A stretch of DNA of 64,000 bases. Source: Paramacrobiotus metropolitanus. Taxonomy: Eukaryota > Tardigrada > Eutardigrada > Parachela > Macrobiotidae. Position numbers and translations under genes: made by a program. Positions 15,493-63,931 of the stretch are shown one piece after another. Every line of letters starts with the position of its first letter. Positions within the stretch are counted from its first letter, which is position 1. The DNA lies in the NCBI RefSeq assembly GCF_019649055.1, contig NW_026570229.1, forward strand, positions 682,001 to 746,000, written 5' to 3'. The notes below the pieces were generated by a model. That model made no database searches and had not been told where the DNA came from. It saw only the letters and a program-made list of their open reading frames with translations.

Positions 15493-15540
<48 letters not shown>

Positions 15541-34541: not shown

Positions 34542-34894
34542 ATTTTAACAACCCTTGGGAGTCTGGATCGTCTGGTGAGTGTTTGGTTTGTTTGGTTGGT
34601 TCTGGTTGTGTTGGTTGGCCACGTGGATCCTCAGAGAGTCCCGTGAGGCACGGTTCCTAAGTGAGAGCCAGGTGCTAGACCGCAGTTTGATACCGCAGTG
34701 ATCTCAGAAGGTCACGCGAGGCACGGTTCCTAAGTGCGAGCCAGGTGCAGGACGGGAGTCCATAATCTGTACTTGTACTGTTGAGTAGTACTGTGTGTAC
34801 TGAGAAGTTGTGGCGAAAGCCCTGTTATTTGGACAGACTTACATCCGGGTACATTGACCTGGATCTCGTGTCTGTGGTTTGGGAAGCAGGCGAA

Positions 34895-37703: not shown

Positions 37704-38795
37704 TCAGTCCGTAAGCATATTTTGCGGACTTATTACTGGCCTGGGATGAATTCTGACTTGTGGAGAATGCAATCAGAGTGTGCGCACTGTTGCACGCACT
37801 GTTAAGTTGAGACTGCAACGTTGCGAGTCCGCGATTTCTGTCACGGGTGTGTTGACAGAAAACTTGCTTTTATTCGCAACCGCAGAATTAATCAGCAAAA
37901 AGGGGATGCTGATTGTGAATGTGATTGATAGTGAACAGTTATGGATTATGACTGTTCATGAATTTGAAGTTAAGTATTTATCGTTTAAGTACTTTGTGTC
38001 TGGTGTCGTAGCCGCTGGTGTAGCAGTTACGCGTGCCGAAACGCTGTACGGCATTAAAGCGCGTGCATTTTTCAAAAATGATTTCAAAAATCAGTTTGAA
38101 CTTTTGCAGTTGTAAAAAGTGCAGTTACTGTTTGTTTGTTTGAGAACTGGATGTTGTGTTTAATCCAGTTCTGATCGATCATCCTTGAGTTAATTTGGGA
38201 TAATGTTGGCTGTAATGGCCAGGTTTGCTCGATCGTTGCAAGAACCGTACGCTGAGGTTAGTTCTTGTGGTCTGCTTGATTCTGGCTTGTTCGATCGTTT
38301 AACTGCAAGTGCAAACTTGCAGTGGGGGTGAGTGCCAGAAAAAGTGGAAAATAAATATCCGCTTTATGGTGCACTCTGAAGATGTGGTAACATGGATTTT
38401 ATTTATCCATTTTGATTCGTGCTGTTGATTGATTTTGCCAGTGTTATCAGAGATTTTGCCATTTCTGATATGTTTGGCTGGTTTAAGTGTGGATCCTCGA
38501 GCTCTTTGGAGGAAGAGGAGAGACGAAAAACTCATGGACGGAACGGACGGAATTTTCAACGTTTTGGATGGATGATGATGTACGCGTCTGGAACAAGGAA
38601 CTCCGGAGGACGTGGACGGATCGCTAACTTGGACCGCTCTTCGAACCCCCGTTTCACCCCCGGATTCCACACACGGATGGTGATGCACTGGATCCTCCAG
38701 GATTACGGTACTTTTCCTGGAGTTGGAGTGTTTTTATTGATTTGGTTTTGTTCTGTTTGTTTTGCGCTGTTGATTAACGCGGACGTTAATTCCCA
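37704..38795 (+). other. Non-coding 3' region of the Ty3-like element
   Basis: No supported ORF. It contains AACTTGCAGTGGGGG at 38314-38328, the same 15 bases as at 37355-37369. Confidence 0.5.
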
Positions 38796-38805
38796 GCAGT
38801 GGGGG
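38796..38805 (+). promoter_or_regulatory. Polypurine-tract-like GCAGTGGGGG at the 3' LTR
   Basis: Abuts the 3' LTR and is the expected plus-strand primer site. The same 10-mer occurs at 37360, 37426 and 38319. Confidence 0.6.
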
Positions 38806-39229
38806 TAACACGCTATGCGTAGAAAGCGTGTACGTACGTACGTGCTATGACGCACGTGTTGTCTGTTTCGTACCATTTTGCTGTTCTTATCTAACGCATT
38901 TGATCACTAATTCCATTAGCGATTCTGATTGCATAGTTAGACTTTGGTCTGCAGAGTTGGAAGAGTCTGAAGACTGTGAAGTTAGCTTTGACTGGAAAGT
39001 TGGTGTGACCTTCTGGTAGAAGTGTGTTCTGTTTGTTGATTAAACATTTGGGAAGTTCCTGAGTGTTTGGGTTTCGGTAGCTTTCGTTAGGCACATCCGC
39101 AGTACCTAGCGGAAGTAGTTTCGTTGTGTACGACCACTCATCGGAGTCCAGAGTGTATTCCCACTGTACCGACTGTGTATGGTTGGTCATCGAGTACGGT
39201 AGTCGGTGCGACTTCCGTATAGCATGTCA
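38806..39229 (+). repeat. 3' LTR of the non-autonomous Ty3-like element
   Basis: 424 bp, partner of 34105-34528, followed by the target copy GTTT. Confidence 0.92.
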
Positions 39230-43690: not shown

Positions 43691-44361
43691 GGTCATTAAG
43701 GTGGTCACAGTAATGTTTGCACTAAAATTGCACTCGAAAAATTTCTTCATGACAGCTGTATTGACGTGTGGAGGAGTACGTACGAGGGATTCCACCGTGC
43801 ATCCACTGACTGTCCGCCTCTACCTGCAAGTACAACCGGAAGTGGTTATCGTTCCATCTAGTCTGTGATTCGTTACTCGTTATGGCTTAGCGATGTATTC
43901 TGATGTACGGCATTTCTAGTCTATATAAGCTTGAGTTATTCCTAATATTGGAGCGGTCTCGGATCAGTCTTGGATTTCAGACTTTGAGACTACTTACTTT
44001 CAACTTCCCTGTGTTGTGCATATGATTGTGTGTTAGCGGAGTAAAGCATTTTCTGTGTTATCGACGTTCATAATTAGATACGGATTATAGCGTGGTAATC
44101 ACGGTATGCTCGTGCTTCGTGGACCCTCATGTGTATCGACCGGAAGTTAGGAGTATTCAGCACAATTGCTGAGGGATTCCTGATTTTACGTGTTCCAGAA
44201 TTATCCATTTCCGTCCGATTTACTGTAACAGTTGATTTAAGAGTTGTTCTACCGACTGGGCATTAAGGCAGGGAGCAGATCTACAATCCGTTTCGTACAG
44301 GGCATCCACCGGATATACCGTACCGAACTGACTGTCATTAGCAGGATCGAGCAATACGACA
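43690..44361 (+). repeat. Putative 5' LTR of the giant Ty3-like element, left end uncertain
   Basis: The right end is fixed by the primer-binding site at 44362. A TATATAAG box lies at 43922-43929, about 430 bp before the LTR end. The left boundary cannot be set without the partner LTR, which is not in the window. Confidence 0.55.
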
Positions 44362-44374
44362 TGGCGCCCACCGG
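44362..44374 (+). promoter_or_regulatory. Primer-binding site of the giant element
   Basis: TGGCGCCCACCGG, identical to the site at 34529, directly follows the LTR end ...acgaca. Confidence 0.8.
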
Positions 44375-44527
44375 GTGTCTCGTAATTTCCCTGATGTTAC
44401 GGTAAATTACGGATGGAAATTGGATGGTGTTTTGTGAAAAAGTGTTGATGGTCCGAGAAAGGCGTCGAACCGAAAGGTGCGCCGAAGGAGGTCAGCGTTC
44501 CTGATCTGGCCTAGGGTTTTTGTTTTA

Positions 44528-45174: not shown

Positions 45175-46317
45175 ATGGCAGATTCAGGGAAGAAAAGTTC
45201 GAGGGCGATCACAAAGATTGACCCGAACATTCTTGCACTGTATAAAGGCGCATACGATGCGTCACAGCAGAAAAGGTTCAAGTTTAATGCGGAAGAAATC
45301 TCCTTGGAACTGTTGTATCGGGAACTAGGCATTGAAGTGCCCGATGTAATGTATTGCGGGAAACTCTGGACAAAATACCAAGAGGACCCACAACAGCCAC
45401 AGTTCCAAAAGAGACGTCCTAATTATTACCCAAATTGGCTTACGACAGACCGGTGCATTCCGGAACCGTACATAAAAGAATATGTGTCGGATGAGCAGTT
45501 TAAAGCGGCAGTCGCCCGTGCACGTGAGAAAATGCCTGAATTTTTGAAAGAAATTGAGGCAAGGAAACAAACAGAGGCTGCGGCGCAGCGCAAAGTTACG
45601 CCACAGGAAACGGAAAGACAAACCCGATCCGCACAGGAAAAGGTCGTCACAACAGTTGTGAATCAGGAAGAGAAGTCGGCACCAAAAGAGGCGCCCTCTC
45701 AGCCTGAGAATTTAAACGAGCCTATATCGGCCGGAAGTCTCATTGACTTCAATGCAGCCATGATGGAAACGGAAGACGATTACTCGTCTAATTACGAGTC
45801 ACCAACCAGTAGGTTGGAGGATAAATCAGACTTACCTAAAATGAAAATGATTCGCACAGGTAATTCCACTTTCCATGCATCCCAGTTGGGATTGCAGCAG
45901 TACATAACGGATAAGGATTTCGAATTCTCTGACGAAGAATTCATGGAACAGGCCGCCAGCGTTGATGATAGGTTGGCCACGGCAGTCACAGAAAAAGATT
46001 TGGAAAAGATCACACGTGAGTCACTCCCGTTCCTATTCCGAGGAATACGGAGAATAGTGGCACAGTCAAAAGCAAAACTGGACTCCATTGGTGAATCAAA
46101 ACGCATGGATCAGCTCCTGCAGGAGGAGAGGAATAATAAATTAAAATTTCAAAATGAATTTAACGAAATGCGGAAAAAGTGCGAAACAGTTAGTAAAGAG
46201 CGGGATACGGCCCTTTACCGGAATAAAGCACTCAACGAAAGTATCTTAAACTATCGACAAAAATCGGAAGAAGATAAAAGGGAATACGAAAATTACTGGA
46301 TGAACTTAACCAGTTAA
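45175..46317 (+). CDS. gag: gag N-terminal ORF of the giant element
   Basis: 380 codons from a true ATG. It is an N-terminal domain (about residues 1-120) with many Lys and aromatic residues, a Glu/Gln-rich linker, and a coiled coil from about residue 300 to the end. The coiled coil clearly continues in the -1 frame (from about 46290) into the long ORF, and this ORF stops 30 bases later. The junction lies at GAAAATTAC (46288-46296), so either -1 frameshifting or a 1-nt indel in the A run links gag to gag-pol. The site is not a canonical X-XXY-YYZ heptamer. The leader from 44362 to 45174 has no other ORF. Confidence 0.8.
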   Translation: MADSGKKSSRAITKIDPNILALYKGAYDASQQKRFKFNAEEISLELLYRELGIEVPDVMYCGKLWTKYQEDPQQPQFQKRRPNYYPNWLTTDRCIPEPYIKEYVSDEQFKAAVARAREKMPEFLKEIEARKQTEAAAQRKVTPQETERQTRSAQEKVVTTVVNQEEKSAPKEAPSQPENLNEPISAGSLIDFNAAMMETEDDYSSNYESPTSRLEDKSDLPKMKMIRTGNSTFHASQLGLQQYITDKDFEFSDEEFMEQAASVDDRLATAVTEKDLEKITRESLPFLFRGIRRIVAQSKAKLDSIGESKRMDQLLQEERNNKLKFQNEFNEMRKKCETVSKERDTALYRNKALNESILNYRQKSEEDKREYENYWMNLTS

Positions 46318-49300
46318 AGGATGATAATCGCAATCTGGAAAATGCCACAGAAGAGCTCCGACGGGAGTATGAAGCATTGAAAGCATCCCGGCAGTCAAAT
46401 GTTAATCAGCAGGCTGACGCCGACCTGCAGAAACAGAATCATAGATTAGCGGAACAGGCAAATACGTTGCGTAGAGAATTACAGCAACAGAGAGATGCCT
46501 ACGTGGAGCTACAGAAAAGAAGTAGTTCAGAGTATAATGAACTGGAAAAGTTGCGGAAGCAGTTGGTAGAAGAACAAAAAAGAATTAATCCGAATGCCGA
46601 TTATGTAGCACAGTTACAGGAAGAACTGGCTACGGTAAAATCCCAGAATGAATTATATTTACAATCGACTAGAGCAGCAACCTCGGCCGTCTCTAAAAAT
46701 AGGGAAGAAACGTTGCTGTCTACAATTGAACAGTATAAAGTTGAACTGGCCAATGAAAAGGCAGAAAGTGAAAAATTAAAGAAGGAACGTCGGCTGGATA
46801 AACCGTGTAATAAATGCTCAGAGTTGGAAAAAGAAGTAAAAGAAGCACAAGCTGTTGCTTACCTGCGCCAAACGGAAGCGGATCGTCTTCGAGCGGAAGG
46901 TGATCAATGTCGAGTCGCCATATATAATCTGCAACAGCATTTGCACAACAATGAAGCAGCTTACGCAGAATTGCAGGAGGAAGTGCAACATTACCGGAAT
47001 CAGGCACAGCATCCGGCCCGAGAAGTTCACTTTGAACCGGAAGCACCAGTGAGCACGGGAGACACAGTTGCTCCGCCCGGAAATGATCGCTACGATCATC
47101 AGACATTCACCCCTTCTGATCCAAATTCGTCACATACACAACGGGAAGCGAGTGCAGCTCCGTCGCTGAAGCCGGTAATCCGTCAGGATAAGGCAGCAGA
47201 AAGGCCTGAAATAAAAGACAATTTTATTAAGTTAAAGAAAACATCAAAACCGGGATTACGGAAGGAAGTGTTGCAGAAGCACACTATCGAAACAGAACAG
47301 AAGAAGAAGAAAAATAGCCGTAAGATTGAATCGGATGAGGAAACAGAACGTGATGACGATAGCGAGGATGATGAACAAAGCGGTCCGCCCAGTGCGACGG
47401 GATCGACGTCGTCTCGATCGTCCCACAGAATTATCCTCCAGGATCCTCGGGAAGTACGACAATCAGAGCGCGACGATAAAATCGCGGATATTCTGGAGAG
47501 GTTAACGGAAAGGGGTACAGAGAGGAATGAGTCCGGGATGAAGCTTCAGAATTTCGATGACACCCGGCCTGAGCGTATCCAGCAGTGGGTGATTTCCGTC
47601 GATCAGTGTCGTACCACAAACGGCTGGAACGATAAACAGACTTGTCGAGCGATTTCCGGTGCACTAAAGGGACCGTCTTATGTTTGGTTCGCTGATCTCT
47701 ATAAAGACAATAAGACAAAGACATGGTCAGAATTCTTCAAACCGGCCATAATTAAGCATTTTAATGGTGCATCGTCTAAAGCGGAAATGAGAAGAGCAAT
47801 GAACAATCGTCATTGCCAGCGGGATGAAGCTGTACGCACGTATATGGACAGTTTCTTAATATGGTTTAAGGAACTAAAAGTTCAAGAAGAAGAAAAAGTG
47901 GAAATTCTCCTGGAAGGTTTGAAAAAGAACAGGAAAGAGTGGTATCGAACCATCTACAGGGATCGACCGGAAACGTATGCCGAGTTCGAAGCACAGCTTC
48001 AGGACTGTGAGAAACTGCAAAAGATTTTGGATGACGAACGGAAGGAAGATGAGCCGCGTCAGCGCGTAACAATTCGAGAGCCGCGGAGTGCGGGCAGTAA
48101 CGTTGAAGCGGAAAATCGCACCAGTCGCGGTGAATACCAGCCACGAGGAAATTACTATTCGTCACGAGGGAATCGCGGGAGCTTTTATAATAACCGCGGA
48201 GGATATTCCAGGCCGTACTACGGCTCTGGCAATTATCAGAATGTACAGACCGGAAGTCAGACGCCGCCACCGCCGGCGCCGGCGCAGCCTATTTCTGTAC
48301 CGAATGTACCTCAGCAACAAGTACAGTACATACCGTATCCGGTATATCAGCAGCCGCAAGTGATGGAGATGCAGCCAGTGCAGTACGCCCAGGCATTTCC
48401 TCCGCCGCCGATAATCCAGCCTCAGATACAGCCGCAGATGCAGGCTCCGGCGCCGCCGCCCGTGCAGCAAGTACAGCAGCCGCTTCCGCCGATGCAGAAT
48501 TTTCAGAATTTCCGGCCAAACGGACCTGCAAATAATAATAATTATAACCAGGGTAACTTCCGGCCGAATAATTACGGTTATAATAATCGTAATAATAATA
48601 ATTTTCATCGGGGTGGAAATAATAATAATTATCGCCCACAGAATAATAATAATAACTTCCGTCCGCAGTATAATAATAATAATAATAATCGGCAAAACAC
48701 GCCAGTGCCTAATCAAGGGGAAGAAATTCCGTTCGATGAGAGAAATGTTGTTAGGGAAAAATGGGCAACCACACGGGGCATTGAGATTTGCTACCGTTGT
48801 CACGGAATACATACGGCAAACTCGTGCAGAAACCCGTTAGCACTACCCAGGTTGTACGAGCCAACTCCGGAAATTCTAAATAGGGCAAACGGCCTCCAAA
48901 TAAATATGATGGACCTTGATCTACCTGCGGGACTGGAAATCCCTCCGATCCAGTGTAATTCGGCAGAAGTAGTGGACATTGATCAGTACCCGCTAGCTGA
49001 TCATGTATGCTTGATGCCGACACTTGACGCACAGGCTTGGTACTCTGTAATTGATGTAAATTACAGAAAAGTCAAAACTATGATAGATACCGGCTCGAGC
49101 ATTTCTGTAATGTCCTATAAAATGGCGAAGGATATGAATTTAAAAATTCACCGGTGTCCGGATCACATTCAGGGAAGAGTGGTGCACACGGCGTATCAAG
49201 GGCGCCAAGTAATTGAGCCGATGTCGGTGGTAGTCACCATACACGAGTTCGGAACAGCGTTTGAACACGCCTTACTGGTCAGCACCATGTTTGATCGGGA

Positions 49301-52300
49301 TCACATTGTGCTCGGTCTTGATTTCCTAGCGACAAAGCCGTTCATTCTGGATATGAGCACGATGACTTGGAGACTCTCACGTCGTCATCCCACTGCACCG
49401 GATTGGTATCCGCGCCGAATGCATCATATGGCGGACATCATACGGTCACATCATTTTGACCCATTGCTGCCGCCAGGAGTTAAGCAGTCGCCGTCGATAC
49501 CGGCGCTGATGTTGACTGAAAGAATAGGTGTAGCAAAAGAAGCTCAGTTTGTACCATATGAATCAGCTCACCTGATACTTGCAAAAGCGAAACCGGAAAT
49601 ATGCCTTATGCATTTACAACGGGCAAAAGAAGAGTGGCCGCGCCCTACAAAACTGGAGAATCCAGTACGTACGGTTGTGTCGACGCCGTCGCCGGCACCG
49701 AAGCCATTGTTGCCGGGCTCAGACAAACGTGACAAAGAATTCCTGGAGGAAGCTGTACATGAAGCAGTAAAGGGCTATGTAAAGCCAAAGCAACAAAAGA
49801 AAACAGAAGTTGTACCGACAATGGAAGTAACCTCCGGTCCAAGTCAAGTTTGTGGGGGAGGTGGTGTGCCACAGCAAAACTTCCAGGAGGAACGAATTAG
49901 AAAGGAAAGTGAACAGTTTCCGCTACCGTCACGGTGCGTGAATAATCCAAATGAAACGGCAATTAAAGGTGGACGATGTCTTGCAATAGATCCCAGTCAA
50001 GTTTGTGGGGGTGACAATAAACCTCCGGTAAAATCACTTTCCACATTGGCAGCATTATTGAGAATGGTACCGGATGAACAGTACACATTCGCCGGGTTTC
50101 CTAAAAAATCAAATAAAACAGTTGAATGCGTAGTTTTTAGTACAAAGGTGCTAAATGTTGTACCGATTGACTTCAATCACCAGCACGTTGACGAAGTGCA
50201 CGAACGGGAATACCCGCACCGCTTGGCGCGAAATCCAGAATTGATGAAATGGATGATGCCGTTAACCCGGCCGCAGGACAAGGACAGATTCCCGACGGAA
50301 AAGGAATTCAGAGATGTTGAGTTCTGGAAAAAAGAGCAGCAGAATTGTATGGATAGCCGGATGTGGCTGAAGTTTCTAAATAACCCGCAAAATGCGAATA
50401 CGAATTACTTGAAGAATGAATTAAACCGGATGCTTACGTTTGAAGGCTTGATTTGCCGCGTCCCTGATCATGACGGGCAGTGCCCACGCATATATGTCCC
50501 ATTTCAGTGGCGGGACAAGTTAATAGCTAAATTTCACGAAATATTGATACATAATCAAGTATATGGGCCACGTGAAAAATTATACCCGTATCTTGTAAAA
50601 ATGTTTTACTGGCCGGATATCATCATCCAGATTGAAGAGTATGAAAAAGAGTGTGAAGTATGCCGTAATTCAGTTAATTTCCGGCAGCAGTTTACAATTA
50701 CTCACCGGAAGGAACGGTTAGCTGAGCCAGAAAAGAAGAGAGTTACATTCTCACCGGAAAATCCCGCTCCGGCAGGTGACTTCGAAAACGGAAGGTTTAT
50801 TCCAGAACCGAGTATGTCGCCAATTGACATGGGACATGTACCAGTCTCCTACGAGGATAGACAGGCGGAGAAGCAGCAATTTACGCGAGATCAAGCGCTA
50901 TCGAAATTACCGTACGGTCTTGACGTTTCCAAAGTACGGCGCAGACCACAGACACATCCGAATGATACGGTGGTGTATTCAGGCGCAACGCAGGACCCGT
51001 CAGTGGCATATCATGGACAGAGAAAAAGAATCCCAGATTTCTGTAACCCGGATGTCCAGTTAAACCAGGTCGCAGTGGCGGATGTCAGTATCGAGGAACA
51101 GCACCGGTTATGGAATCAGATTCAACAAAATAACGAGGTTATCCCTCCTCCAGAACAATTTGCAGATAATCCGGTATACGGAAACACAGGAACTTTCGGA
51201 ATACAACCGGAAGATACGGGGTATATGCCTGCAAGAAGAAGGAAATCAGGTGCGAGCCGCCGGTGGAAACGGCAGCTATTACAACAGCAAACAGTAGCGC
51301 AGATGGCTATGGAAAGCCAGCCGCCACAGAGAGTGGCACACAGTTTGCCCAAGAGATCACAGGACGCGAGGGAATCGGTGGAAATTCCGGCGTGTGTATA
51401 TACGCGCGACGGTATCGAGTTAGCCTATCGTGAAGCGCATCTGCAACAAGCGGAAATGAATATGACTGAGCACAATATGTACCAGCCCGAATTAATGCAA
51501 GATACACGGGAAATGATGCAGGAAATGTTTCCCTCTGACCTTGATGAAATTTATAATGTACAGCCGGAAGTCGGCCCGATAGAATTCTTCAAGATGGAAT
51601 TATTTCCGGTCCAACCAGTGGTAATTCAACCGCACAGTCAGGGAATTATCCGTGCAACAACAGAACTGTCACCGGAAAGTCTGCACCGATTTAACAGGGC
51701 AAACCTGCAAGAGAAGCCGTATCTGTATGAAGGCAAAATCCCAGAAAATAACAAGAATGCCTTGTTGTTTGATGGCGTTGTTTCGCTGAATGATAAAGGA
51801 AACTGTCGACTTTGTGTTATGAACGTTTCCGATCAGCAGTTAATTTTGAATAAAGATACTAACCTGGGTAGTATCGTTGCCGTAGAGGAAGTGTACCAAA
51901 TGAATACCCCAGAGTACAACGAAAATTATCATGACGAGTTCTGCCGTATATCACGAGATAATAATGGACTTCCTGTGCAGGATAAACGCTGTGAATGTCG
52001 GGCGATGCAGGCACAAAGTCCACTGTTTGATAATGCGGTTGACGCTGAAACAGAGGAAACATTTTCCAAAATTAAAGTTGGGGACATTTGCCCAGATAAA
52101 CAGGCATTGAAGAAAATATTTTACAAGGCCAAGGCGGTATTACCTACCAAGGCACGGCCAGTAGGATGTTGCACCATTTACGAACACTCGGTAGACACCG
52201 GAAATAGCGCACCGGTGCGGACGCCGCCGTACAGGACGTCCTTCGAGGACCGGAAATGGCTGCAAGCAAAAACACAGGAAATGGTTAAGGACGGTATCAT

Positions 52301-55300
52301 CGAGCCGACTAATTCGGCGTGGGGAAGCCCCATATGCATCGTAAAGAAAAAAGATAAGTCGCGCCGACTTACCGTTGACTTTCGAAAGCTTAACGAGCGC
52401 CTGCTAGGCAGCTCGTATCCGTTACCGCGTGTCGATGATATCCTCAATGCGCTTGACAAGGCGAAGGTATTTTCGAAGATAGACCTGAAGTCTGGCTTCT
52501 GGCAAATAAAGATTAAACCAGAAGACCGTCCTAAAACAACGATGGTAGGCGAGGAATTTACATTTCAATACAAAGTATTACCTTTCGGGATGAAGGACGC
52601 GCCTTCCGCTTTCCAACGTGCCATGGATTTGACGTTAGCCAATATGAAATGGCGTAACGTGTTAGTATTTATTGATGACATTATTGTATTTTCAAAGAAT
52701 CTTCAAGATCACATGAAGGATCTTGAAGAATTATTCCTTCGTCTTCAGGAATGCGGCTGGACAATTAGCCCAGAAAAAACGGAGCTTTTTGTAAATACGA
52801 TAACGTTTTTGGGACATACTGTTGATGAACACGGCATTAGTACAGACCCTGAGAAAATACAGGCTGTACGTGATTTCGGCCCGATTAAAGACAAAAAGGA
52901 CATACTTCGATTTTTGGGAATGGTAGGTTACTACCGCCAGTTTATTAAGAATTTTCAGGAGAAGGCAGAGCCATTACAAAGGTTGATACCGAAAAAGGTA
53001 GATTTCGAGTGGGGTGAAGAGCAAATTAGAGCGGTTGAGGAGCTAAAAGATGCACTTACTTCGGCTCCAGTATTGGCCCGTTATGACCCGGAAGCGGTGT
53101 CACGTGTTGTTGTCGACGCGAGCACTATTGCCGTCGGCGCCGTGCTGATGCAGTGCCCTAAAGGACAGAAAACAGAGGTACCAGCAAACTGGAGGCCAAT
53201 CGCATATTTAAGCCGAAAGTTAACCGAAACTCAGAAGAGATTATATTTTCCAACTGAGTTAGAGGCGTACGCCTTAATCTGTGCGTTAAAAAAGTGGCGG
53301 CACTATCTCTCCGACTACTTGTTCGAGGTCCAGATCGACCACCAAGCGCTGGTTTTTCTTCATAATATGCGGGACGCCGCAGGCCGTCTTGGACGCTGGG
53401 CCCTTTACGTACAGCAATTCAACACGAAACCTGTGCATATACCTGGGAAGGAGAACGTCATAGCAGATGCACTCAGTCGTAATCCAGGGGATCAACCCGA
53501 GCCAACATCCGACGAGTCTGACATCGAGTTTGATTACCGGCAAACGTATCCATTCACTGGCGATGCCGCCATGATTGAGTTGTGTCATAAGGTACTTGAA
53601 CGGGATTACTTGGATCATTACATGGAAATGACTGCGATGTCCATGGAATTGAAAGTGATAAACAAACATGATGAAGAAGCGTTCGATGCTAATAAAATAC
53701 AGAAATTAGTACAGGATGAAAAAGCGGCATACTGGGCAGAGGAACAGTCACGGGATAAAACCATTTGCAGGTGGAAATTATTATTAGAGAATAATAAGGA
53801 GAAAATGTCTGCGCATGAGCGGTTACATTTGAATAAATTCGTAGTACGCCAGGGCGTTGTGTATTACAAATTCGAACTAAACAAGAAGATATATTACTGC
53901 ATGTATGTACCTTTGCATCGGCGTTTCGAATTCCTTCGGGATAACCACGACTCTCCATTAGCAGCTCACCTAGGAGTACTGGCAACCTATAAAAGAATTT
54001 ATAAGTACTTCTACTGGCCGAAAATGTTTGAAGCAGTGAGACAGTACTGTGCTTCGTGTCCGGCATGTCTGGCGCAGAATACACCGGCAACGGCACCGGC
54101 GGGGCAGTTGCAGACGAATCCCACGGTTCCTCCAAGAATGGTCTGGGCGATCGATGTTGCTCCAGCACTTCCGCCAACCGAATCTGGAAACAAAAACATA
54201 ATTATTGCGGTAGATTACGGGAGCAAGTACGTAGTGGCGGAGGCAGTAGAAAGAAATGATGCGGCCACTTTGGCGCTGTTCTTTTACCGGCGTATTTTAA
54301 CAGTATTTGGTATGCCAGCGCACATCACTTCCGATCGTGGTAGCAACTTCATGTCTGAGCTTTTTCGGGAATTGTTAGCACTTTCAGGCGTCGCTCACGC
54401 ACCCACGGCGTCAGGACATCAACAGGGGAATGGCCTTGTTGAGAAAAGAGTAGGCGAGATAAAACGGGCATTGGCCAAATATGTTAATGAGAAACAGAAC
54501 GACTGGGATGTCTTTCTGCCCGCACTTACTGCAGCCTTCAACGCTAAAGTGGTCGAACGGACGCAGCATTCTCCATTTTTCCTGATGTACGGACAGGAAA
54601 TGAGGCTCCCGATGGCTAATTTCCTTCCACTCGATGAAGATTATGTGGTTCCTGCACACGTATATGTGCAACAGATGCAGAGAGGATTGGGTGAAGCATT
54701 AGAGATGGTTAATGCAGAGGAGTTCAGGCATAAACTAAAAGATAAAATACGGTATGATGCTAATACATCGGAAGTAAAATATAATGCGGGTGACCATGTA
54801 TTGGTATACGTATTACACCGGAAATTGGGTAAAAATCCGAGTCTCAGCCCTAAATGGACCGCAGGCTGGGAAGTGGTTAGGCAAAGTAGCCCCGTGCACT
54901 ATGTAGTTAAGAGTAACAAAAAGGGAAATGTTAAATTAGACACAGTGCATGTGTCCAGGCTAAAGCCTTACTGTTTTCGGGATGTGGACGTCATCCTTGC
55001 TGATGAGCAGCCGCTGAAGCTCCTTTCTTGTTTTGAAAAAGAGAGCCCAGATGTGGTAGACGAAGTGCCGGCTCCGCCGCCCGTCCTACCGACACCGGAT
55101 ATGGCGACATCGCCACTGGATCGTGAATACGCGGAGTTTTTGGACAAACAAGAAATGGCCCCGGTTGTACGCACAAAGTCTGGACGTGTCAGTAAACCAG
55201 TGGTAAAATTCGCGGTTGAGCATTCTAAAAGAAAAAGGGATCAGAGTACCGGTAGACCGGCTGATACTACTTCGGCAGACAAATTAGCCGATGTCCCGAA

Positions 55301-56006
55301 TGTATCCCAGTATATGACGGTATCGGCAGAAAGACAAGTACCACAGAAGCGAATAAAAATTGAACCAATATTTCCACCATCGATACCTATGCCAGAGACG
55401 AAAATAATTTATCCAGAACACGACATGGCCCCTACCGACAAGATAGCAAAAGTAACTGTAAAACCGGAGATATTTTGCGGTATTTTCGAAACGGAAGTCA
55501 ATGCAATGGTAAGTCAACAGAAAAGTAACATACCGGTACACGACATGGTCCCACCTGAAATACCAGATTGGGCGAAGCCCACGGAGAAATTTTGGCCCGT
55601 TGGTGTTGTAAATGATGACATTATGGAGCGTCCGGAATTCTGGCGTTTCCGGCAATCCGAATGTGCAGATATACAAATGTGGAAGGCGCTGGTAGATGGC
55701 GTACTTGTGGATAACTCCCGGTATGTACAGCAGCATTTACCTAAAATAATAAATAAGAATGGGTACATCTGCTATGTAGACAGTTCACCGGAAAAAGTGC
55801 ACAGAATTTTGGTACCTCACCAATGGCGCACTCTGTTGTTGGAATCTGTACATTGGCGCCTTAAACACAAATATTTTAGTAATGTGCGCGTACTGGATTA
55901 TATACTGTATGAATTAAGACTATACTGGCCGGAAGTCGAACGCGACGTATTGTCTTATGAAGATGATTGTGTACACTGCTGGTCCAAAGGAAACCACCGG
56001 AAATAA
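46290..56006 (+). CDS. pol: Giant gag-pol polyprotein with three HHCC zinc modules
   Basis: 3,209 codons counted from 46377 (TTG; no ATG is needed if frameshifted from gag). Residues: coiled coil 1-220; Lys/Asp-rich 300-350; capsid-like 385-560; Pro/Gln- and Asn-rich 640-800; knuckle CX2CX3HX4C from C805; aspartic protease DTGSS at D904 and VLGLDFL later; extra HHCC module H1387-x4-H1392-x33-C1426-x2-C1429; RT with VDF at D2001 and FIDD (D2100, D2101); RNase H with D2247; integrase HHCC H2524/H2531/C2561/C2564 and D2593, D2653, E2689 (D35E); then a tail with a third module H3159-x4-H3164-x33-C3198-x2-C3201. All catalytic residues I looked for are present and there is no internal stop, so it looks functional. 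The extra modules and great length are unusual for Ty3 elements. Confidence 0.92.
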   Translation, partial: KLLDELNQLKDDNRNLENATEELRREYEALKASRQSNVNQQADADLQKQNHRLAEQANTLRRELQQQRDAYVELQKRSSSEYNELEKLRKQLVEEQKRINPNADYVAQLQEELATVKSQNELYLQSTRAATSAVSKNREETLLSTIEQYKVELANEKAESEKLKKERRLDKPCNKCSELEKEVKEAQAVAYLRQTEADRLRAEGDQCRVAIYNLQQHLHNNEAAYAELQEEVQHYRNQAQHPAREVHFEPEAPVSTGDTVAPPGNDRYDHQTFTPSDPNSSHTQREASAAPSLKPVIRQDKAAERPEIKDNFIKLKKTSKPGLRKEVLQKHTIETEQKKKKNSRKIESDEETERDDDSEDDEQSGPPSATGSTSSRSSHRIILQDPREVRQSERDDKIADILERLTERGTERNESGMKLQNFDDTRPERIQQWVISVDQCRTTNGWNDKQTCRAISGALKGPSYVWFADLYKDNKTKTWSEFFKPAIIKHFNGASSKAEMRRAMNNRHCQRDEAVRTYMDSFLIWFKELKVQEEEKVEILLEGLKKNRKEWYRTIYRDRPETYAEFEAQLQDCEKLQKILDDERKEDEPRQRVTIREPRSAGSNVEAENRTSRGEYQPRGNYYSSRGNRGSFYNNRGGYSRPYYGSGNYQNVQTGSQTPPPPAPAQPISVPNVPQQQVQYIPYPVYQQPQVMEMQPVQYAQAFPPPPIIQPQIQPQMQAPAPPPVQQVQQPLPPMQNFQNFRPNGPANNNNYNQGNFRPNNYGYNNRNNNNFHRGGNNNNYRPQNNNNNFRPQYNNNNNNRQNTPVPNQGEEIPFDERNVVREKWATTRGIEICYRCHGIHTANSCRNPLALPRLYEPTPEILNRANGLQINMMDLDLPAGLEIPPIQCNSAEVVDIDQYPLADHVCLMPTLDAQAWYSVIDVNYRKVKTMIDTGSSISVMSYKMAKDMNLKIHRCPDHIQGRVVHTAYQGRQVIEPMSVVVTIHEFGTAFEHALLVSTMFDRDHIVLGLDFLATKPFILDMSTMTWRLSRRHPTAPDWYPRRMHHMADIIRSHHFDPLLPPGVKQSPSIPALMLTERIGVAKEAQFVPYESAHLILAKAKPEICLMHLQRAKEEWPRPTKLENPVRTVVSTPSPAPKPLLPGSDKRDKEFLEEAVHEAVKGYVKPKQQKKTEVVPTMEVTSGPSQVCGGGGVPQQNFQEERIRKESEQFPLPSRCVNNPNETAIKGGRCLAIDPSQVCGGDNKPPVKSLSTLAALLRMVPDEQYTFAGFPKKSNKTVECVVFSTKVLNVVPIDFNHQHVDEVHEREYPHRLARNPELMKWMMPLTRPQDKDRFPTEKEFRDVEFWKKEQQNCMDSRMWLKFLNNPQNANTNYLKNELNRMLTFEGLICRVPDHDGQCPRIYVPFQWRDKLIAKFHEILIHNQVYGPREKLYPYLVKMFYWPDIIIQIEEYEKECEVCRNSVNFRQQFTITHRKERLAEPEKKRVTFSPENPAPAGDFENGRFIPEPSMSPIDMGHVPVSYEDRQAEKQQFTRDQALSKLPYGLDVSKVRRRPQTHPNDTVVYSGATQDPSVAYHGQRKRIPDFCNPDVQLNQVAVADVSIEEQHRLWNQIQQNNEVIPPPEQFADNPVYGNTGTFGIQPEDTGYMPARRRKSGASRRWKRQLLQQQTVAQMAMESQPPQRVAHSLPKRSQDARESVEIPACVYTRDGIELAYREAHLQQAEMNMTEHNMYQPELMQDTREMMQEMFPSDLDEIYNVQPEVGPIEFFKMELFPVQPVVIQPHSQGIIRATTELSPESLHRFNRANLQEKPYLYEGKIPENNKNALLFDGVVSLNDKGNCRLCVMNVSDQQLILNKDTNLGSIVAVEEVYQMNTPEYNENYHDEFCRISRDNNGLPVQDKRCECRAMQAQSPLFDNAVDAETEETFSKIKVGDICPDKQALKKIFYKAKAVLPTKARPVGCCTIYEHSVDTGNSAPVRTPPYRTSFEDRKWLQAKTQEMVKDGIIEPTNSAWGSPICIVKKKDKSRRLTVDFRKLNERLLGSSYPLPRVDDILNALDKAKVFSKIDLKSGFWQIKIKPEDRPKTTMVGEEFTFQYKVLPFGMKDAPSAFQRAMDLTLANMKWRNVLVFIDDIIVFSKNLQDHMKDLEELFLRLQECGWTISPEKTELFVNTITFLGHTVDEHGISTDPEKIQAVRDFGPIKDKKDILRFLGMVGYYRQFIKNFQEKAEPLQRLIPKKVDFEWGEEQIRAVEELKDALTSAPVLARYDPEAVSRVVVDASTIAVGAVLMQCPKGQKTEVPANWRPIAYLSRKLTETQKRLYFPTELEAYALICALKKWRHYLSDYLFEVQIDHQALVFLHNMRDAAGRLGRWALYVQQFNTKPVHIPGKENVIADALSRNPGDQPEPTSDESDIEFDYRQTYPFTGDAAMIELCHKVLERDYLDHYMEMTAMSMELKVINKHDEEAFDANKIQKLVQDEKAAYWAEEQSRDKTICRWKLLLENNKEKMSAHERLHLNKFVVRQGVVYYKFELNKKIYYCMYVPLHRRFEFLRDNHDSPLAAHLGVLATYKRIYKYFYWPKMFEAVRQYCASCPACLAQNTPATAPAGQLQTNPTVPPRMVWAIDVAPALPPTESGNKNIIIAVDYGSKYVVAEAVERNDAATLALFFYRRILTVFGMPAHITSDRGSNFMSELFRELLALSGVAHAPTASGHQQGNGLVEKRVGEIKRALAKYVNEKQNDWDVFLPALTAAFNAKVVERTQHSPFFLMYGQEMRLPMANFLPLDEDYVVPAHVYVQQMQRGLGEALEMVNAEEFRHKLKDKIRYDANTSEVKYNAGDHVLVYVLHRKLGKNPSLSPKWTAGWEVVRQSSPVHYVVKSNKKGNVKLDTVHVSRLKPYCFRDVDVILADEQPLKLLSCFEKESPDVVDEVPAPPPVLPTPDMATSPLDREYAEFLDKQEMAPVVRTKSGRVSKPVVKFAVEHSKRKRDQSTGRPADTTSADKLADVPNVSQYMTVSAERQVPQKRIKIEPIFPPSIPMPETKIIYPEHDMAPTDKIAKVTVKPEIFCGIFETEVNAMVSQQKSNIPVHDMVPPEIPDWAKPTEKFWPVGVVNDDIMERPEFWRFRQSECADIQMWKALVDGVLVDNSRYVQQHLPKIINKNGYICYVDSSPEKVHRILVPHQWRTLLLESVHWRLKHKYFSNVRVLDYILYELRLYWPEVERDVLSYEDDCVHCWSKGNHRK

Positions 56007-56384
56007 GCAAAATAAATAAGCAGGTACATGGTACCTTGTAAATGTTGTACATATGATTTGATATTTTAACTTCCGTTAGGTTTCAATGGTTTTACATGTA
56101 TATAGTCAAATTATACGCGGTTAACTTGCTATCAGCAGAATCTGGAAGGGTTAAATTGTACGTACTCGTATGAGAATAATTCGTCATTGGTTGGCAGGAT
56201 TAAGAGAATTAGACAGCGTTCGTTGTCTTCTTATGATGCACGAGATCCGGGTAAAATTTTACAGTCAAAATCTAATTAGTAGGTAGCAGCACACAGTGTT
56301 AAAGTTTAAAGGTGCGAATTTTAATTGAGAGCGATTTAACGGCAAATTTTTGCAAGTGTGCTCCCTTCTGACTTACACGTTATC
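56007..56384 (+). other. Spacer after pol, no LTR
   Basis: About 380 bp with no ORF. It shows no match to the 5' LTR, so the element does not end here. Confidence 0.5.
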
Positions 56385-57092
56385 ATGGATCCCAATGATC
56401 AGCAGATTCCTCCTGAGGATGAGTTAATGGCAGAGGAACTGCCAGATGACGATGCAGAAATGGTAGAGGCGGACGATGAAGGATCAGAGACGGGCACCAG
56501 TGACTCTGTTGATGGAGAATCGGACAGTGGTGCATCACCGTCAGACAGCGGACAGGAAACTGAGGAAGATGACTGTCAACTTCCTCCGACTACGAAGGAC
56601 TACGCACGTGGTGCGGATGGCCGTCCGCATCCATGGTCGATTTGGCGACGGGAAAACGAAGAACCGTATGTTGCCGTCCATCCTGATACGCGAATCTACA
56701 TTGGCAATAAGTGTCTACAAGCGGGTGGTGTCATGCCAGTGAAACGTTTCAATGAGTACCTGGCTACATTGGATTATGAGCATCCGGCGGATAACTTGAT
56801 TTGGCAGTTCTTGTGTGCCAGCCCGCATAACACTTCAAAGATTGCTCACCTGGTGTATCAGCTGCGTCGAAACCACGGAGTGGATATCGTGAAGGACCCG
56901 TTGTTCACGATTACAGCCGTTGGGTTGGATCCAGGCGAATTGAATGATAAAGGAGCTACGTTGACGTATGGACAAGTCTTGGCGCGCGTGTCGAACCAAG
57001 CACAACAGCCACGGAATGAATTTCCGCTCCAGGATGCTGCTGTACGCGAGGATGCCATGCAGCGAGGGACTAAGCGTGGTCATGATGAATAA
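56385..57092 (+). CDS. Accessory ORF 1, acidic N terminus, unknown function
   Basis: 235 codons from the ATG at 56385. The first 75 residues are highly acidic (Asp, Glu, Ser), like a disordered or activation-type tail. A folded part follows (HPWSIWRRENEEPYVAVHP, IYIGNKCLQAGGVMP) ending in RGTKRGHDE, which could include a nuclear signal. It has no signal peptide or membrane segment. It is the first of five same-strand ORFs after pol with similar style and base composition. I recognise no family. Confidence 0.65.
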   Translation: MDPNDQQIPPEDELMAEELPDDDAEMVEADDEGSETGTSDSVDGESDSGASPSDSGQETEEDDCQLPPTTKDYARGADGRPHPWSIWRRENEEPYVAVHPDTRIYIGNKCLQAGGVMPVKRFNEYLATLDYEHPADNLIWQFLCASPHNTSKIAHLVYQLRRNHGVDIVKDPLFTITAVGLDPGELNDKGATLTYGQVLARVSNQAQQPRNEFPLQDAAVREDAMQRGTKRGHDE

Positions 57093-57620
57093 TGCAGAAG
57101 GCCGCTTGGCGTGAAATTCCCCATGGGATAGAGCAACCTACGGAATAATAATGATTTTAGTTCTAAAATGAATAGTGATTTGTTGTTTCGTTAAGCCGTT
57201 GGACCACGAAAATTATGGAAAACTTTAACTGCACTGTGTGTTCTTAGGTTTTCACTCACAAACCTGTCTGTATCGTTATAGTCGGTGCATCTTCGTTGTG
57301 TCCGGTTAGAATAATTGATGAAGTATAAAATAAATGGAAGATGAATGCGAGACTGATCGTGGATTCAGAATCTGAATAAAAGGAATAAAATGCAAATAGA
57401 ATACCGTAGGGGCAAACGGTAAAACCACAACAAACTGGCAACAAGCCAACCACCCTCGGTAGTGACTGCCTGGGGTACTCAGAGAATTGTGCACGCTGTA
57501 TCGCGCATAACGCGTAATGCAAAACGGAAGTTTACATTTTATTCTTTTATTTGGAAGTTCTCAAGACTTTTAGATCCTGCGGCTCTTAAACAGTCTAAAA
57601 CAATTTTAATTAACGCAAAC

Positions 57621-58166
57621 ATGACGTCTCCTGTTTCCGACGCTGTGTTTTTGACAAACGAAGTCTACAGCAGGCTTAAAGCCCCACCGAAATGGGACTT
57701 TAATGCTTGGTTGTATGCGGATGCGATTCAGATTTGGCGAGAGTCGCCCAGCGGGATTCCGTTACAGAAAGCTCTTGAAAGAGCTATGGAACAGGATCTG
57801 GGCCCAGAGAGTGAAGAAGAGAGTCTCCTCACTCGGAATTTTCATCCTGATACTGCGGAACACCAGAAAGATCACTTCTGTAGCTTCGCGCACCGTATGT
57901 TGGAAGCACGTGCACACCTACAGCAGCTGCAGCGTGATACGCTCGCCGCGGGCCGTTTCTTCACGAAGGAAGAGGCAGAGAAGTTTGCCCAAGCAATTCA
58001 CACCTTGGACACCATGCAGCGCGGTGCGGACATGTTTGCGGACGACCGCATCCGAATCTTACTTAAGAAGAAGCTGGAACGCCAGCAGGAGATTTTGGAT
58101 GCTATGAAGCAGACCGCAGAAGAACAAGAGCAGGCTGAAATAGCCACGATCAGTAAGGCGCATTAG
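57621..58166 (+). CDS. Accessory ORF 2, helical, unknown function
   Basis: 181 codons from the ATG at 57621; the open frame extends upstream but has no earlier ATG. It is mostly helical, with an acidic stretch (GPESEEES) and a C-terminal Gln/Glu/Lys-rich helix that may form a coiled coil (KKKLERQQEILDAMKQTAEE). No membrane segment and no recognised family. Confidence 0.6.
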   Translation: MTSPVSDAVFLTNEVYSRLKAPPKWDFNAWLYADAIQIWRESPSGIPLQKALERAMEQDLGPESEEESLLTRNFHPDTAEHQKDHFCSFAHRMLEARAHLQQLQRDTLAAGRFFTKEEAEKFAQAIHTLDTMQRGADMFADDRIRILLKKKLERQQEILDAMKQTAEEQEQAEIATISKAH

Positions 58167-58273: not shown

Positions 58274-58693
58274 ATGTATGTAGGCAAACCCTCACCGGAA
58301 ATGGCACAACAGCAGATGATCCACGCTGCTGCTACGGTGCGGTATTGGCAAGTACATTTGCGTTGGGCAGCGAAGAGAGCTGCAGTCCGCAAGGCATACA
58401 AGAATTGCCCCAAGGAACCGAAACAGACGAAGGCACCGGAACTTGAATCAGCTGAGCCAGTGGTGCAGGCGATGCAACTGAAGCCACACGCTGAAGTAGC
58501 TCCAGCTGCACAACAACTTCCGCCGAAACCAAGGAAAGTCAAGAAGTTGCACGCCCGTCCCGTCAGCTTGTACAAAAACGCTGAGGAAGTGGATGCAGCA
58601 GTAGCAGTTATTCTGAAGCAGCCGGAGGAGAAACAGGATCGTAAACAGCTGCGTTGGCTTATGAAGCAGTATGTTCGCTTGGCTGACAAGTGA
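58274..58693 (+). CDS. Accessory ORF 3, basic protein, unknown function
   Basis: 139 codons from the ATG at 58274, 107 bp after ORF 2. Strongly basic with Ala, Gln and Pro runs, and helices rich in Lys/Arg and Trp at both ends (RYWQVHLRWAAKRAAVRKAY; KQLRWLMKQYVRLADK). It may bind nucleic acid, an inference from charge only. Confidence 0.55.
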   Translation: MYVGKPSPEMAQQQMIHAAATVRYWQVHLRWAAKRAAVRKAYKNCPKEPKQTKAPELESAEPVVQAMQLKPHAEVAPAAQQLPPKPRKVKKLHARPVSLYKNAEEVDAAVAVILKQPEEKQDRKQLRWLMKQYVRLADK

Positions 58694-59348: not shown

Positions 59349-59748
59349 CTTTTAGGGACTTCCGGTGAAGTTTGTAATGTAACGCGCCGAAGTGTAGCAT
59401 AGGGGCGCACAAGCATACACAGCTGCCCCTTAGCTTTCAATATTCGTTTTCAGTTTTAAATAGGGAGTCCTCGCCTCCAAATGCGAAATTAAGGTACAAA
59501 TTTATATTTCAAGTAAAATTTAACCAAAAGGAAGGACAGAGCGGTCGAATTCGGATTTTGAGTAACGTTCAAAAATTAACAGACAGTGGCGAGCTGAACC
59601 ATTAAAAACTTCCGCTCACGTACTCATTTTCAACGGTGTAACATTCATAATTACAGTTAGTCGTGGATAATTTTGAATTCCGGAAAAGTCGTAGTATTTT
59701 AATGACGCGGTCGAACTAATTGTGTTAATTGTGGAATTTTATCGTAAA

Positions 59749-60453
59749 ATGGCTCGTCAAGTGCAGGACGAGGAGAAAGTTCCTCAGTTGGTGCCTGCAG
59801 CCAGGCTGCCTCTGAAACAGATGCCTAAACTACAGCGAGTTTTGGAGATTAAGGAATGGTATGCGGAGGCTACGTGGGCAGCGAAACCATACGAACCCGA
59901 GCCCAAGCCTGTGCAGAAACCTACAGATGTGGGGGATTTAATGCAACTCTCCGATGATGAAGTTGAAATGGAGGGAACTGGAAAAGACGAACAGGTGATT
60001 CCGTCCTCCATCCCAGTTAAATTTCCGCTGCCTGTACCCCTCAGAGTTGAGCAGCGCGCACAACAGTTGGCTGCAGAAGCTCACGATCCGAATGAGGAAC
60101 CAGACGAAGAAGATCCTCCTATGGGTGTACACAAAGAGACGTTAGCGGAAATTGAGCTTAAGGCTCGATTGGCGCAACAGCGTAGCGGACGCCAGATGAT
60201 CATCCAGCAACACCAGTTGCCGAACAATCAGCTTTTGCCCAAGTGGCATGTGAAGTACACAGCGCACCTCACTCCAGAGCAGCTGACCAAGCTGACTTAC
60301 GAGAAGTTCATTCGCATGGCTCGACGCCAGTACTGGGAGGAGTACAATCGGATCTTGTGTGGACGCGGACCGTATTGTGACGCGTGGACTCCGCGCGGTT
60401 CTGGTTTAGATTGGATGCCAACTTATAACGGATTCAATTTTGTTTATTATTAA
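59749..60453 (+). CDS. Accessory ORF 5, unknown function
   Basis: 234 codons from the ATG at 59749. The N-terminal half is Pro/Glu/Lys-rich with an acidic patch (MQLSDDEVEMEG and NEEPDEEDPP). The C-terminal part is richer in aromatic residues (KWHVKYTAHLTPEQLTKL, RRQYWEEYNRILCG, ending NGFNFVYY). Like ORF 1 it combines an acidic disordered region with a compact domain. No known family is recognised. Confidence 0.6.
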   Translation: MARQVQDEEKVPQLVPAARLPLKQMPKLQRVLEIKEWYAEATWAAKPYEPEPKPVQKPTDVGDLMQLSDDEVEMEGTGKDEQVIPSSIPVKFPLPVPLRVEQRAQQLAAEAHDPNEEPDEEDPPMGVHKETLAEIELKARLAQQRSGRQMIIQQHQLPNNQLLPKWHVKYTAHLTPEQLTKLTYEKFIRMARRQYWEEYNRILCGRGPYCDAWTPRGSGLDWMPTYNGFNFVYY

Positions 60454-62039: not shown

Positions 62040-63324
62040 TTAATTAAGATCAGATGGAGAACAAAGAGCGGCCTTGATAGAGTCCTTCTCCTTCTCGTGA
62101 TCTGCCATTCGTTTCTTCAGCTTGGCGATCGAGCGATCTGCGCGAGTAATATTATCGCGCAACGAGTCGGCAATAGCGTTCAGAACCTTGCCTGTCTGAA
62201 CGCAATCCTTTCGAATGATTTCACTGAATGTTGGACCTTCAGTCTTTGCGCGTGTAGATCGGCGTGGCATTAGGGAAACGCGGTCAGCAGAAGAACAACC
62301 AAAGTGCAGCGGACCGGGCTTCGCTTTAATTGTAGGATCTGAGTCCGCGTTGATCATACCCATTGTACCAGCCAGGAAACACGGTTGCTCGTTTCGCGCT
62401 TTCTTCACAGCGCCCCCCACGATTTCAGCGGCGTCCGCGCCGATGAAGCCCACGCTGGCGACGGCCAAGTTGCCAAACCCTTTACACCCACCAGCGCAGT
62501 CGGTTTGGTGCGCCTGCATACGAACATCTGCAACACATTTAAAAATTAAAATTAGGATAATGATGTGCTGATTAGCAAAATGGCGGGTGAATTAATGCGT
62601 CAGTAAATATGAAAATTGCACGGACTCATATATTAGTAAAGATTGGGTGATTAAATTATTGGATGAAAACTAACAACTCACTTAAAGTACGGCCTAGCTC
62701 CGATGATAGCTCTCCGACACGAATCGCTCGTAACTTGTCATCCACGCAGGGATGAATAAACAGCGTCCCATTGCTGGTCCGTACGCATCCTTTCTTTAAC
62801 ATAAACATTAGAGCACGGCGGAAATCACTACGGAAATACTGCAGTTTGACGGCGTACGTCTGTTTCAGCCAGACGAGAAGTTCGATACGCGTCAGCCCGT
62901 GCCCAGCTTCCAGCAGAATTCCCGAAATGGCAGCACGTAGACGGTGAGCAGTGTCGATTGTCATCGTTTGTCGTTCACTGCGCAGGCGTTCAGCTTCACG
63001 TAACACAAAGCGGCCATCATCATTCAGCTGTTTGAGGAGAAATCCGGTTGACAGAGCGTTTTCGATATACAATTTCACTCGCGGTGTGGTGAAATCCGGG
63101 TGAAGAGTACACAGGAAATCCTCCATGGATTTCACATCCACGAGTTCGTCCTTTATGAAGGCATCTAATAACCGAACTTGGACAGCGACTTTCAAAGCGT
63201 CGTCACGTCGGATTTTCTTCGTTTCTTCAAGATCCAGCGGGGCGTCCATCATGCCTTTGAGATCTTTGCAGAGACGGCGCGATCCTTGCTGATCTCCAGG
63301 GACAGGAGCTCCTAAGCAATACAT
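62040..63324 (-). CDS. Spliced minus-strand gene of unknown function
   Basis: Two exons: 63324-62682 and 62527-62040. The intron (154 bp) has a donor GTGAGT and an acceptor TTGCAG. Exon phases agree (643 bp ends in phase 1; the second exon continues the frame to the stop), giving about 376 residues. The start is the ATG at 63324; an upstream exon is possible because AG sites lie just before it. The N-terminal half is helical, and a segment (ISGILLEAGHGLTRIELLVW, then a basic FRSDFRRALMFMLKKGCV) looks like a winged helix. The second exon starts with a Gly/Cys/Ala-rich stretch and ends in a charged coiled coil (RDNITRADRSIAKLKKRM). I recognise no family. It is antisense to the accessory ORFs, so it is either host or captured by the giant element. 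Confidence 0.6.
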
Positions 63325-63931
63325 TGCGCTGATATAAATAGGATAAATAAATAAGTAATAATAAGAAACGGAAATAAACAGAACACGACAGACAAATAGC
63401 ACGAGAAACGAGAGAGGAAAAGACGAGCACAGCTGATGAGTTCGCGAAACTCAGCTGTTAAAATTCGAAATTCAGCGAACTCCTATTCGGCATGCTGTCG
63501 TATGCTGAACACCCGTTAAAAGGCAGTTACGGTCAGAAACCGAATGTATCCCAGCCTGTATGTGCCCATGCGGGTACCCGCTCTTTGATTGATCTGGAAA
63601 CTATGAATTGGTAGTTTCCCGTCTTCTAAACATTAAAATATTATAATTTAGACTAAAAAGAATTTTATGATCCATAAAAACTACCGGAAATGAGTTCCAG
63701 TAGTTTGGAATAAGTGAATTTAGTACTGTATTTACGCACCGGAAATTGTGCCTGTCGTCAGGCAACCGCTGTTGAATGATGCTTACGTGACTTTACGGTT
63801 TGTGCAGTCCTATCGAGCACATGGCCGGCGAAATTTTGCAAGTTAAAATTTTCGGGTTCGCCACTTTAGTATTTTAAGCCTTGGAATTTACATTGTATAT
63901 GGGATCGTTGCCCATTTCCCTTCGTTTCACG
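63325..63931. promoter_or_regulatory. Divergent intergenic region
   Basis: About 600 bp between two divergent reading frames, so it should hold both start regions. I see no clear TATA box on either strand. Confidence 0.4.

What the first reader, a model, noticed from the sequence alone, without database searches (positions are those of the whole stretch)
46290..56006. Ty3-type polyprotein with three HHCC zinc-binding modules
Besides the normal integrase HHCC (H2524/H2531/C2561/C2564), the polyprotein has one module between protease and RT and one at its C terminus. The two extras have identical spacing, H-x4-H-x33-C-x2-C, distinct from the integrase one (H-x6-H-x29-C-x2-C). All three have an F/YW...EQ/RQ-type lead-in, and the extras share RI(Y/L)VP(F/H)QWR before the His pair and YWP before the Cys pair. 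This implies duplication of an integrase N-terminal module within one element. I know of no Ty3 element described with this layout.
Basis: partly seen in the sequence, partly recalled or inferred. Interest (0 to 1): 0.9.

Follow-up and report, generated by a model that had tools for sequence, protein, structure and literature searches.

The report
Giant retroelement with triplicated integrase module
A recently inserted giant jumping gene, most likely of a tardigrade, carries two extra copies of the zinc-binding front end of its integrase enzyme, and stripped-down relatives keep only that piece on their shell protein, which suggests the piece has a job of its own.

Summary
Confirmed and enlarged. 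The 3,209-aa Ty3/gypsy polyprotein holds three integrase-type NED+HHCC modules: between protease and RT, the integrase's own, and at the C terminus. Profile, profile-profile and predicted-fold tests support both extras. They are no one-element oddity: 64 of 80 related mod1 hits in the genome have all three in order; dN/dS is 0.03-0.19 in 12 of 15 computable pairs. All extra modules in the tree form one group apart from all integrase NTDs sampled (100/100), so mod1 and mod3 share an ancestor. Families C, E and F also carry a module ahead of the integrase. The element is far bigger than stated: about 26 kb between identical 600-bp LTRs (43762 to about 69832, past the window), with ten accessory ORFs under purifying selection, two of them antisense. 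Relatives in which no RT or integrase was found keep the module, among them a small Gag-module family with a copy in this window (34105-39229) whose frame ends just after it. I favour a docking/recruitment role over a catalytic one (inferred). No equivalent layout turned up in the searches made. Host inferred: the tardigrade Paramacrobiotus metropolitanus. New variant of a known kind.

The parts
43762..44361 (+). 5' LTR, 600 bp, TG...CA; 100% identical to the 3' LTR outside the window (contig C9 751233-751832); TSD GTAT
44362..44382 (+). primer binding site TGGCGCCCACCGGG...
   Evidence: PBS role recalled, not tested against a tRNA
45175..46317 (+). N-terminal part of Gag; other frame than the rest in this copy
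46377..56006 (+). Gag-Pol polyprotein, 3,209 aa listed (frame open from 46278)
48789..48827 (+). nucleocapsid-type Cys knuckle
   Evidence: motif read by eye
48894..49376 (+). aspartic protease
   Evidence: PF13975 1.2e-7
50271..50699 (+). extra module 1 (NED+HHCC) between PR and RT
50712..52076 (+). linker region before RT; its last ~165 aa recur twice in family D (possibly dUTPase-like by eye, not tested)
52077..53696 (+). RT and RNase H
   Evidence: RVT_1 2.9e-35; RT_RNaseH 9.8e-28
53721..54149 (+). integrase's own NED+HHCC
   Evidence: (PF17921 6.9e-18)
54117..54986 (+). integrase core and C-terminal domain
55596..56003 (+). extra module 3 (NED+HHCC), C-terminal end of the polyprotein
56358..57092 (+). 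accessory ORF 1
57462..58166 (+). accessory ORF 2
58274..58693 (+). accessory ORF 3
59722..60453 (+). accessory ORF 4
62040..62519 (-). accessory ORF 5, antisense
62656..63402 (-). accessory ORF 6, antisense; relatives 4-16 kb downstream of 62 of 72 mod3 hits
34105..39229 (+). related small LTR element (424-bp LTRs, 100% identical): Gag + one NED/HHCC module, no PR/RT/RH/IN core recognised
37449..37799 (+). NED/HHCC module of the small element; one stop between HH and CC in this copy, none in the 6 other copies read

Best explanation
A lineage of Ty3/gypsy LTR retrotransposons, giant in its A family at least, copied the NED+HHCC front end of an integrase to a second place in its polyprotein, and in families A and B to a third, and has kept these copies under selection (shown). 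Most likely the extra modules are docking modules: as integrase NTDs do inside an intasome, they contact integrase (or each other) and so hold Gag/Gag-Pol, RT and integrase together in the particle or pre-integration complex. Relatives without recognisable RT/IN keep the module as the C-terminal tail of Gag or Gag-PR because it lets them collect a helper's enzymes (inferred). Identity and homology about 0.97; the docking role about 0.4.
For: Homology and fold. Conservation: 64 of 80 mod1 hits have IN-NTD and mod3 in order; dN/dS 0.032 (mod1, window vs C11 copy) and 0.060 (mod3, same pair), with dS near 2. One ancestry of the extras. Retention without enzymes: family D, 13 copies with two modules, 0 of 13 with a listed IN-NTD within 8 kb downstream, D mod1 pair dN/dS 0.039; C51 and C30 loci, PR-module then stop, with a Gag-type Cys knuckle read by eye in C51; small family H, frame ends within 4 residues after the last Cys in 6 of 6 copies read, dN/dS 0.18-0.42 in 10 of 10 pairs of 5 of these copies.
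Against: No interaction was measured. Zinc ligands are not universal: 32 of 45 distinct mod1-type rows and 27 of 30 mod3 rows hold H-x4-H...C-x2-C; the second module of D and those of E2 have lost ligands, and 1 of 6 H copies has lost the second His. Of D only one copy (L050) was read; RT/IN could lie further downstream than the 3.2, 1.9 and 1.2 kb read in D, C51 and C30. The IN list scored 150 of 942 candidates and I used its best 100 or so rows. dS is close to saturation in many pairs, 10 of 25 could not be computed. Copies in dead elements keep selection signatures for a while.
Confidence: 0.45

Rival explanations
1. Target-site tether: mod3, at the end of the integrase, does what the chromodomain does in chromoviruses and binds chromatin or a host factor.
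For: mod3 follows the integrase CTD by a tail of about 200 residues, the place of the chromodomain (recalled). The best PDB match of both module profiles, Ty3 integrase, was solved on a TFIIIB-bound tRNA gene (7q5b).
Against: Does not explain mod1 before RT, nor the module as the tail of a Gag without recognised integrase.
Confidence: 0.22
2. Extra intasome subunits in cis: the spare NTDs fill NTD positions of a larger integrase multimer.
For: Same predicted fold, HHCC kept in most copies.
Against: Kept in polyproteins where no integrase was found.
Confidence: 0.15
3. RNA/DNA-binding role in packaging or reverse transcription of a very long genome.
For: The element is about 26 kb; a module follows Gag in family H.
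Against: The H element is only 5.1 kb; integrase NTDs are mainly protein-contact domains (recalled).
Confidence: 0.13
4. Functionless duplication or nested-insertion debris.
For: Some modules have lost ligands.
Against: dN/dS far below 1, retention across families, one open frame through all three modules in 6 loci.
Confidence: 0.02

Closest known systems
Ty3 integrase NTD (7q5b) and PFV/MLV integrase NED+HHCC
   Same: predicted fold of both extra modules; HHCC ligands
   Different: one per polyprotein there (recalled); three here, two of them outside the integrase's own N terminus
Burro giant gypsy-like elements of planarians (PMC6431247, passages read)
   Same: internal region above 20 kb, huge polyprotein, accessory ORFs, an extra domain between PR and RT
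   Different: Burro's extra domains are BIR, MATH, BCL2-like, ankyrin, dUTPase-like and others; none matched here in Pfam; the passages read mention no integrase NTD duplication
Retand/Grande plant elements with antisense ORFs between pol and 3' LTR (PMC11963269, PMC7264820, passages read)
   Same: conserved antisense ORF between pol and 3' LTR; non-autonomous members
   Different: pol-3'LTR region 2.9-6.6 kb in Retand, about 13.2 kb here; no PF04195 match
Chromoviruses
   Same: extra domain after the integrase CTD
   Different: chromodomain there; NED+HHCC here, no chromodomain match

Membership tests
Ty3/gypsy (Metaviridae) | domain order PR-RT-RH-IN | tested here: met
Ty3/gypsy (Metaviridae) | LTRs TG...CA, short TSD, PBS next to the 5' LTR | tested here: met
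   600/600 identical LTRs, TSD GTAT, PBS at 44362
Ty3/gypsy (Metaviridae) | nearest RTs are Ty3/gypsy | tested here: met
   120 of 1,363 hits listed: highest identity 44%, one of the two a Dinothrombium 297-like pol (P0012)
Integrase H2C2 zinc-binding domain (mod1, mod3) | HHCC ligands | tested here: met
   kept in 32 of 45 mod1-type and 27 of 30 mod3 distinct rows
Integrase H2C2 zinc-binding domain (mod1, mod3) | fold of integrase NED+NTD | tested here: met
   predicted models only, pLDDT 65.7 and 78.3, from 3-row alignments that include the integrase NTD
Integrase H2C2 zinc-binding domain (mod1, mod3) | Pfam PF17921 gathering score by the window's own sequence | tested here: not met
   24.5 and 14.9 bits against 25.5; a detection threshold, so I call them divergent homologues
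Integrase H2C2 zinc-binding domain (mod1, mod3) | zinc binding | not testable with these tools
   needs protein
Burro | BIR/MATH/BCL2/ankyrin domains | tested here: not met
   no such Pfam match in polyprotein pieces or accessory ORFs
Chromovirus | chromodomain at the integrase C terminus | tested here: not met
   piece 55002-56003: only PF17921, E 0.13
Retand | antisense ORF with PF04195 | tested here: not met

The most novel reading that the evidence does not exclude
An integrase domain has been turned into a portable recruitment tag: autonomous giant elements use it to tie RT and integrase to the particle, and enzyme-less families (Gag-module, Gag-PR-module) use the same tag to hijack a helper's enzymes.
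Probability: 0.33. Interest if true: 0.87.

Novelty: new variant of a known kind. Interest (0 to 1): 0.72.

Why it matters
How non-autonomous LTR elements obtain a helper's RT and integrase is, to my knowledge, poorly understood; a conserved integrase-type module on an enzyme-less Gag would give a concrete, testable answer. It also shows an integrase NTD evolving apart from catalysis, and adds a (probably tardigrade) lineage to the retroelements above 20 kb with a large accessory gene set.

Tried and rejected
ORF 58983-59348 as an accessory gene: rejected (pN > pS against C13, 7 stops), with its weak integrase-SH3 hit (E 0.036). Nematode host: no exact SL1; no cuticle-collagen match, but none of the 14 control genomes rang either, so that search is uninformative. 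Homologues of mod1 elsewhere: none in two protein searches (only proteins of about 880-3,850 aa were candidates) and none in viral contigs. Four Closterium proteins with two H2C2 domains also carry two or three RT matches, so I read them as joined pols. PDB profile hits alone are weak (E 0.07 and 0.09). Single-sequence PDB searches of the two modules found nothing relevant. Accessory ORFs: no convincing Pfam match; the antisense ORF looked winged-helix-like by eye, but there was no PDB match. No opposite-strand control was made for the antisense pN/pS. Holding the pre-RT modules together as one clade is not rejected (p 0.351), so the order of copying is open. In the tree with family H the branch dividing H from the other extra modules is weak (93/65). 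Of the five mod3 models only the best reached pLDDT 78; the others lay at 50-60.

Not followed for want of letters: the 3' sides of families B, E and F, and larger stretches round C51, C30 and C99.
Full report
WHAT IS THERE. The ORF 46377-56006 encodes protease, RT, RNase H and integrase in Ty3 order. The three modules share 17 invariant columns over about 120 residues, from a W..Q...W lead-in (the N-terminal extension, NED; name recalled) to the last Cys.

A MULTI-COPY LINEAGE. From the 150 rows I took 80 as mod1 of families A, B and G; 64 of the 80 have both an integrase NTD and a mod3 downstream in order, 4.2-6.5 kb from mod1 to mod3 (with rows; each search scored at most 150 candidates). 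Six loci list one open-frame length (3,242-3,610 aa) for all three modules. dN/dS between the window and C11 copies is 0.032 for mod1 and 0.060 for mod3, with dS near 2, so only roughly known. Of 25 pairs 10 were saturated; the 15 others range from 0.032 to 0.331, 12 of them under 0.19. Ligands: 32 of 45 distinct mod1-type rows and 27 of 30 mod3 rows keep H-x4-H...C-x2-C; misses include copies with stops, family E (other Cys spacing), E2 and the second module of D.

ARCHITECTURES. A and B: mod1, integrase, mod3. C (L052): PR, mod1, RT, RH, integrase. F (L107, L108, L111): PR then a module, integrase further down. E: a module about 2.9 kb upstream of an integrase NTD on C57 and C378; RT between them was not read in E and F. 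No mod3 was found after the CTD in L052, L115 and L116. The C217 element has PR and integrase 2.0 kb apart and no module in the stretch read after PR (L109), so it looks canonical. D (L050): PR-mod1, two copies of the pre-RT region, each followed by what looks like an RT vestige (one matched by tblastn, one by eye), then a C-terminal module and stop; no RT or integrase match in 3.2 kb beyond. Thirteen D-type places have both modules and none has a listed integrase NTD within 8 kb downstream; only L050 was read. L113 and L114: PR-module-stop. H: a module after Gag; 14 copies of 72% identity or more over most of the query, the window's included, 7 of 14 with frames of 987-1,143 aa. In 6 of those 7, of which I read only 701 bases each, the stop follows the last Cys by at most 4 residues.

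ANCESTRY. With 58 rows all 26 integrase NTDs lie on one side and all 32 extra modules on the other (100/100); mod3 is one group (100/99) among modules that end their frames (95/87). Adding six H modules leaves the integrases together (100/99) and puts H between them and the other extras, weakly (93/65). The lineage's own integrase NTDs, the other integrases and the extras meet at one node, so without a root I cannot tell a copy of the lineage's own NTD from a copy of an older one; the shared lead-in favours its own (mod1 aligns to lineage NTDs over 118 columns, to others over 94). Holding pre-RT modules together is not rejected (p 0.351).

THE WHOLE ELEMENT. The 600-bp 5' LTR (43762-44361) recurs identically at C9 751233-751832, ending 5.8 kb beyond the window: about 26.07 kb in all, TSD GTAT, PBS at 44362. 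Identical LTRs mean a recent insertion. The C13 copy has LTRs 98.7% alike. Between pol and the 3' LTR (about 13.2 kb) lie ten ORFs with relatives in C13, C11 and C248: six in the window (two antisense), four beyond it (L046 882, 1622, 3446, 4720). pN < pS in 32 of 32 comparisons of these ten (two of the 32 contain stops; some cover part of the ORF). No Pfam family convinces (best E 0.017). The antisense ORF 62656-63402 has a relative 4-16 kb downstream on the opposite strand of 62 of 72 mod3 hits (72 of the 150 rows taken as mod3) and of 11 of 13 second modules of D; same-strand and upstream controls for mod3: 0 and 0. So D looks like a giant element that lost its enzymes.

A SECOND MEMBER IN THE WINDOW. 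At 34105-39229 lies an H element: 424-bp LTRs, 100% identical, the same PBS start, a capsid stretch 31% identical to the large element's Gag (8e-18), a Cys knuckle (by eye), and one module (HMM 5e-17) with one stop in this copy. Matches there to PR, RT, RH or integrase core/CTD of the large element are at E 0.024 or worse.

HOST. The genome has 169.8 Mb and its first contig C1 has 4,484,719 bases, the longest that I saw. The published P. metropolitanus genome is given as 170 Mbp with a longest scaffold of 4.48 M (PMC11191345, passages). I infer that species, about 0.9.

MECHANISM. Shown: homology, fold prediction, conservation, selection, retention where no RT/IN was found. Inferred: that the module docks integrase. 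Integrase NTDs work by protein contacts in intasomes (recalled), and an enzyme-less Gag needs a way to obtain integrase; one tag serving both explains pre-RT, C-terminal and Gag-terminal placements. Chromatin tethering, an intasome role in cis and nucleic-acid binding remain possible.

LITERATURE. Searches listed no title or abstract start that tells of duplicated integrase NTDs in an element; passages were read in PMC6431247, PMC11071193, PMC11191345, PMC7264820 and PMC11963269, nothing whole. Most subscription journals are outside the library, and Repbase reports were not searched. PMC11071193 lists two other tardigrades and does not contain the name metropolitanus.

Noticed in passing
window 34105-39229: Small LTR element with 100% identical 424-bp LTRs: Gag plus one integrase-type module only; 14 copies of 72% identity or more in the genome.
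   Followed up: yes
window 62040-62519 and 62656-63402 (-): Two antisense ORFs inside the giant element with pN < pS; the second recurs at a similar place in families A, B and D. By eye it resembles a tandem winged helix; not supported by Pfam or PDB.
   Followed up: partly
L050 (C86), 3214-8001 (-): Multi-copy family whose frame has two modules and doubled pre-RT regions with RT-like vestiges but no recognised RT/IN.
   Followed up: partly
window 5761-5935 and 8973-9147: 175-bp direct repeat, 97% identical, 3.2 kb apart: possible LTRs of another element.
   Followed up: no
window 11.5-42 kb: Diverged blocks (about 60-90% alike) repeated two or three times, as in a tandemly duplicated gene region; an inverted repeat recurs at 21733-21946 and 41555-41759.
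   Followed up: no
window 14854-15400: AT-rich tandem array with 8-15 bp spacing (GC 0.23 in 14001-16000).
   Followed up: no
L046 7294-7743: Kinase-like ORF just downstream of the 3' LTR (read by eye).
   Followed up: no
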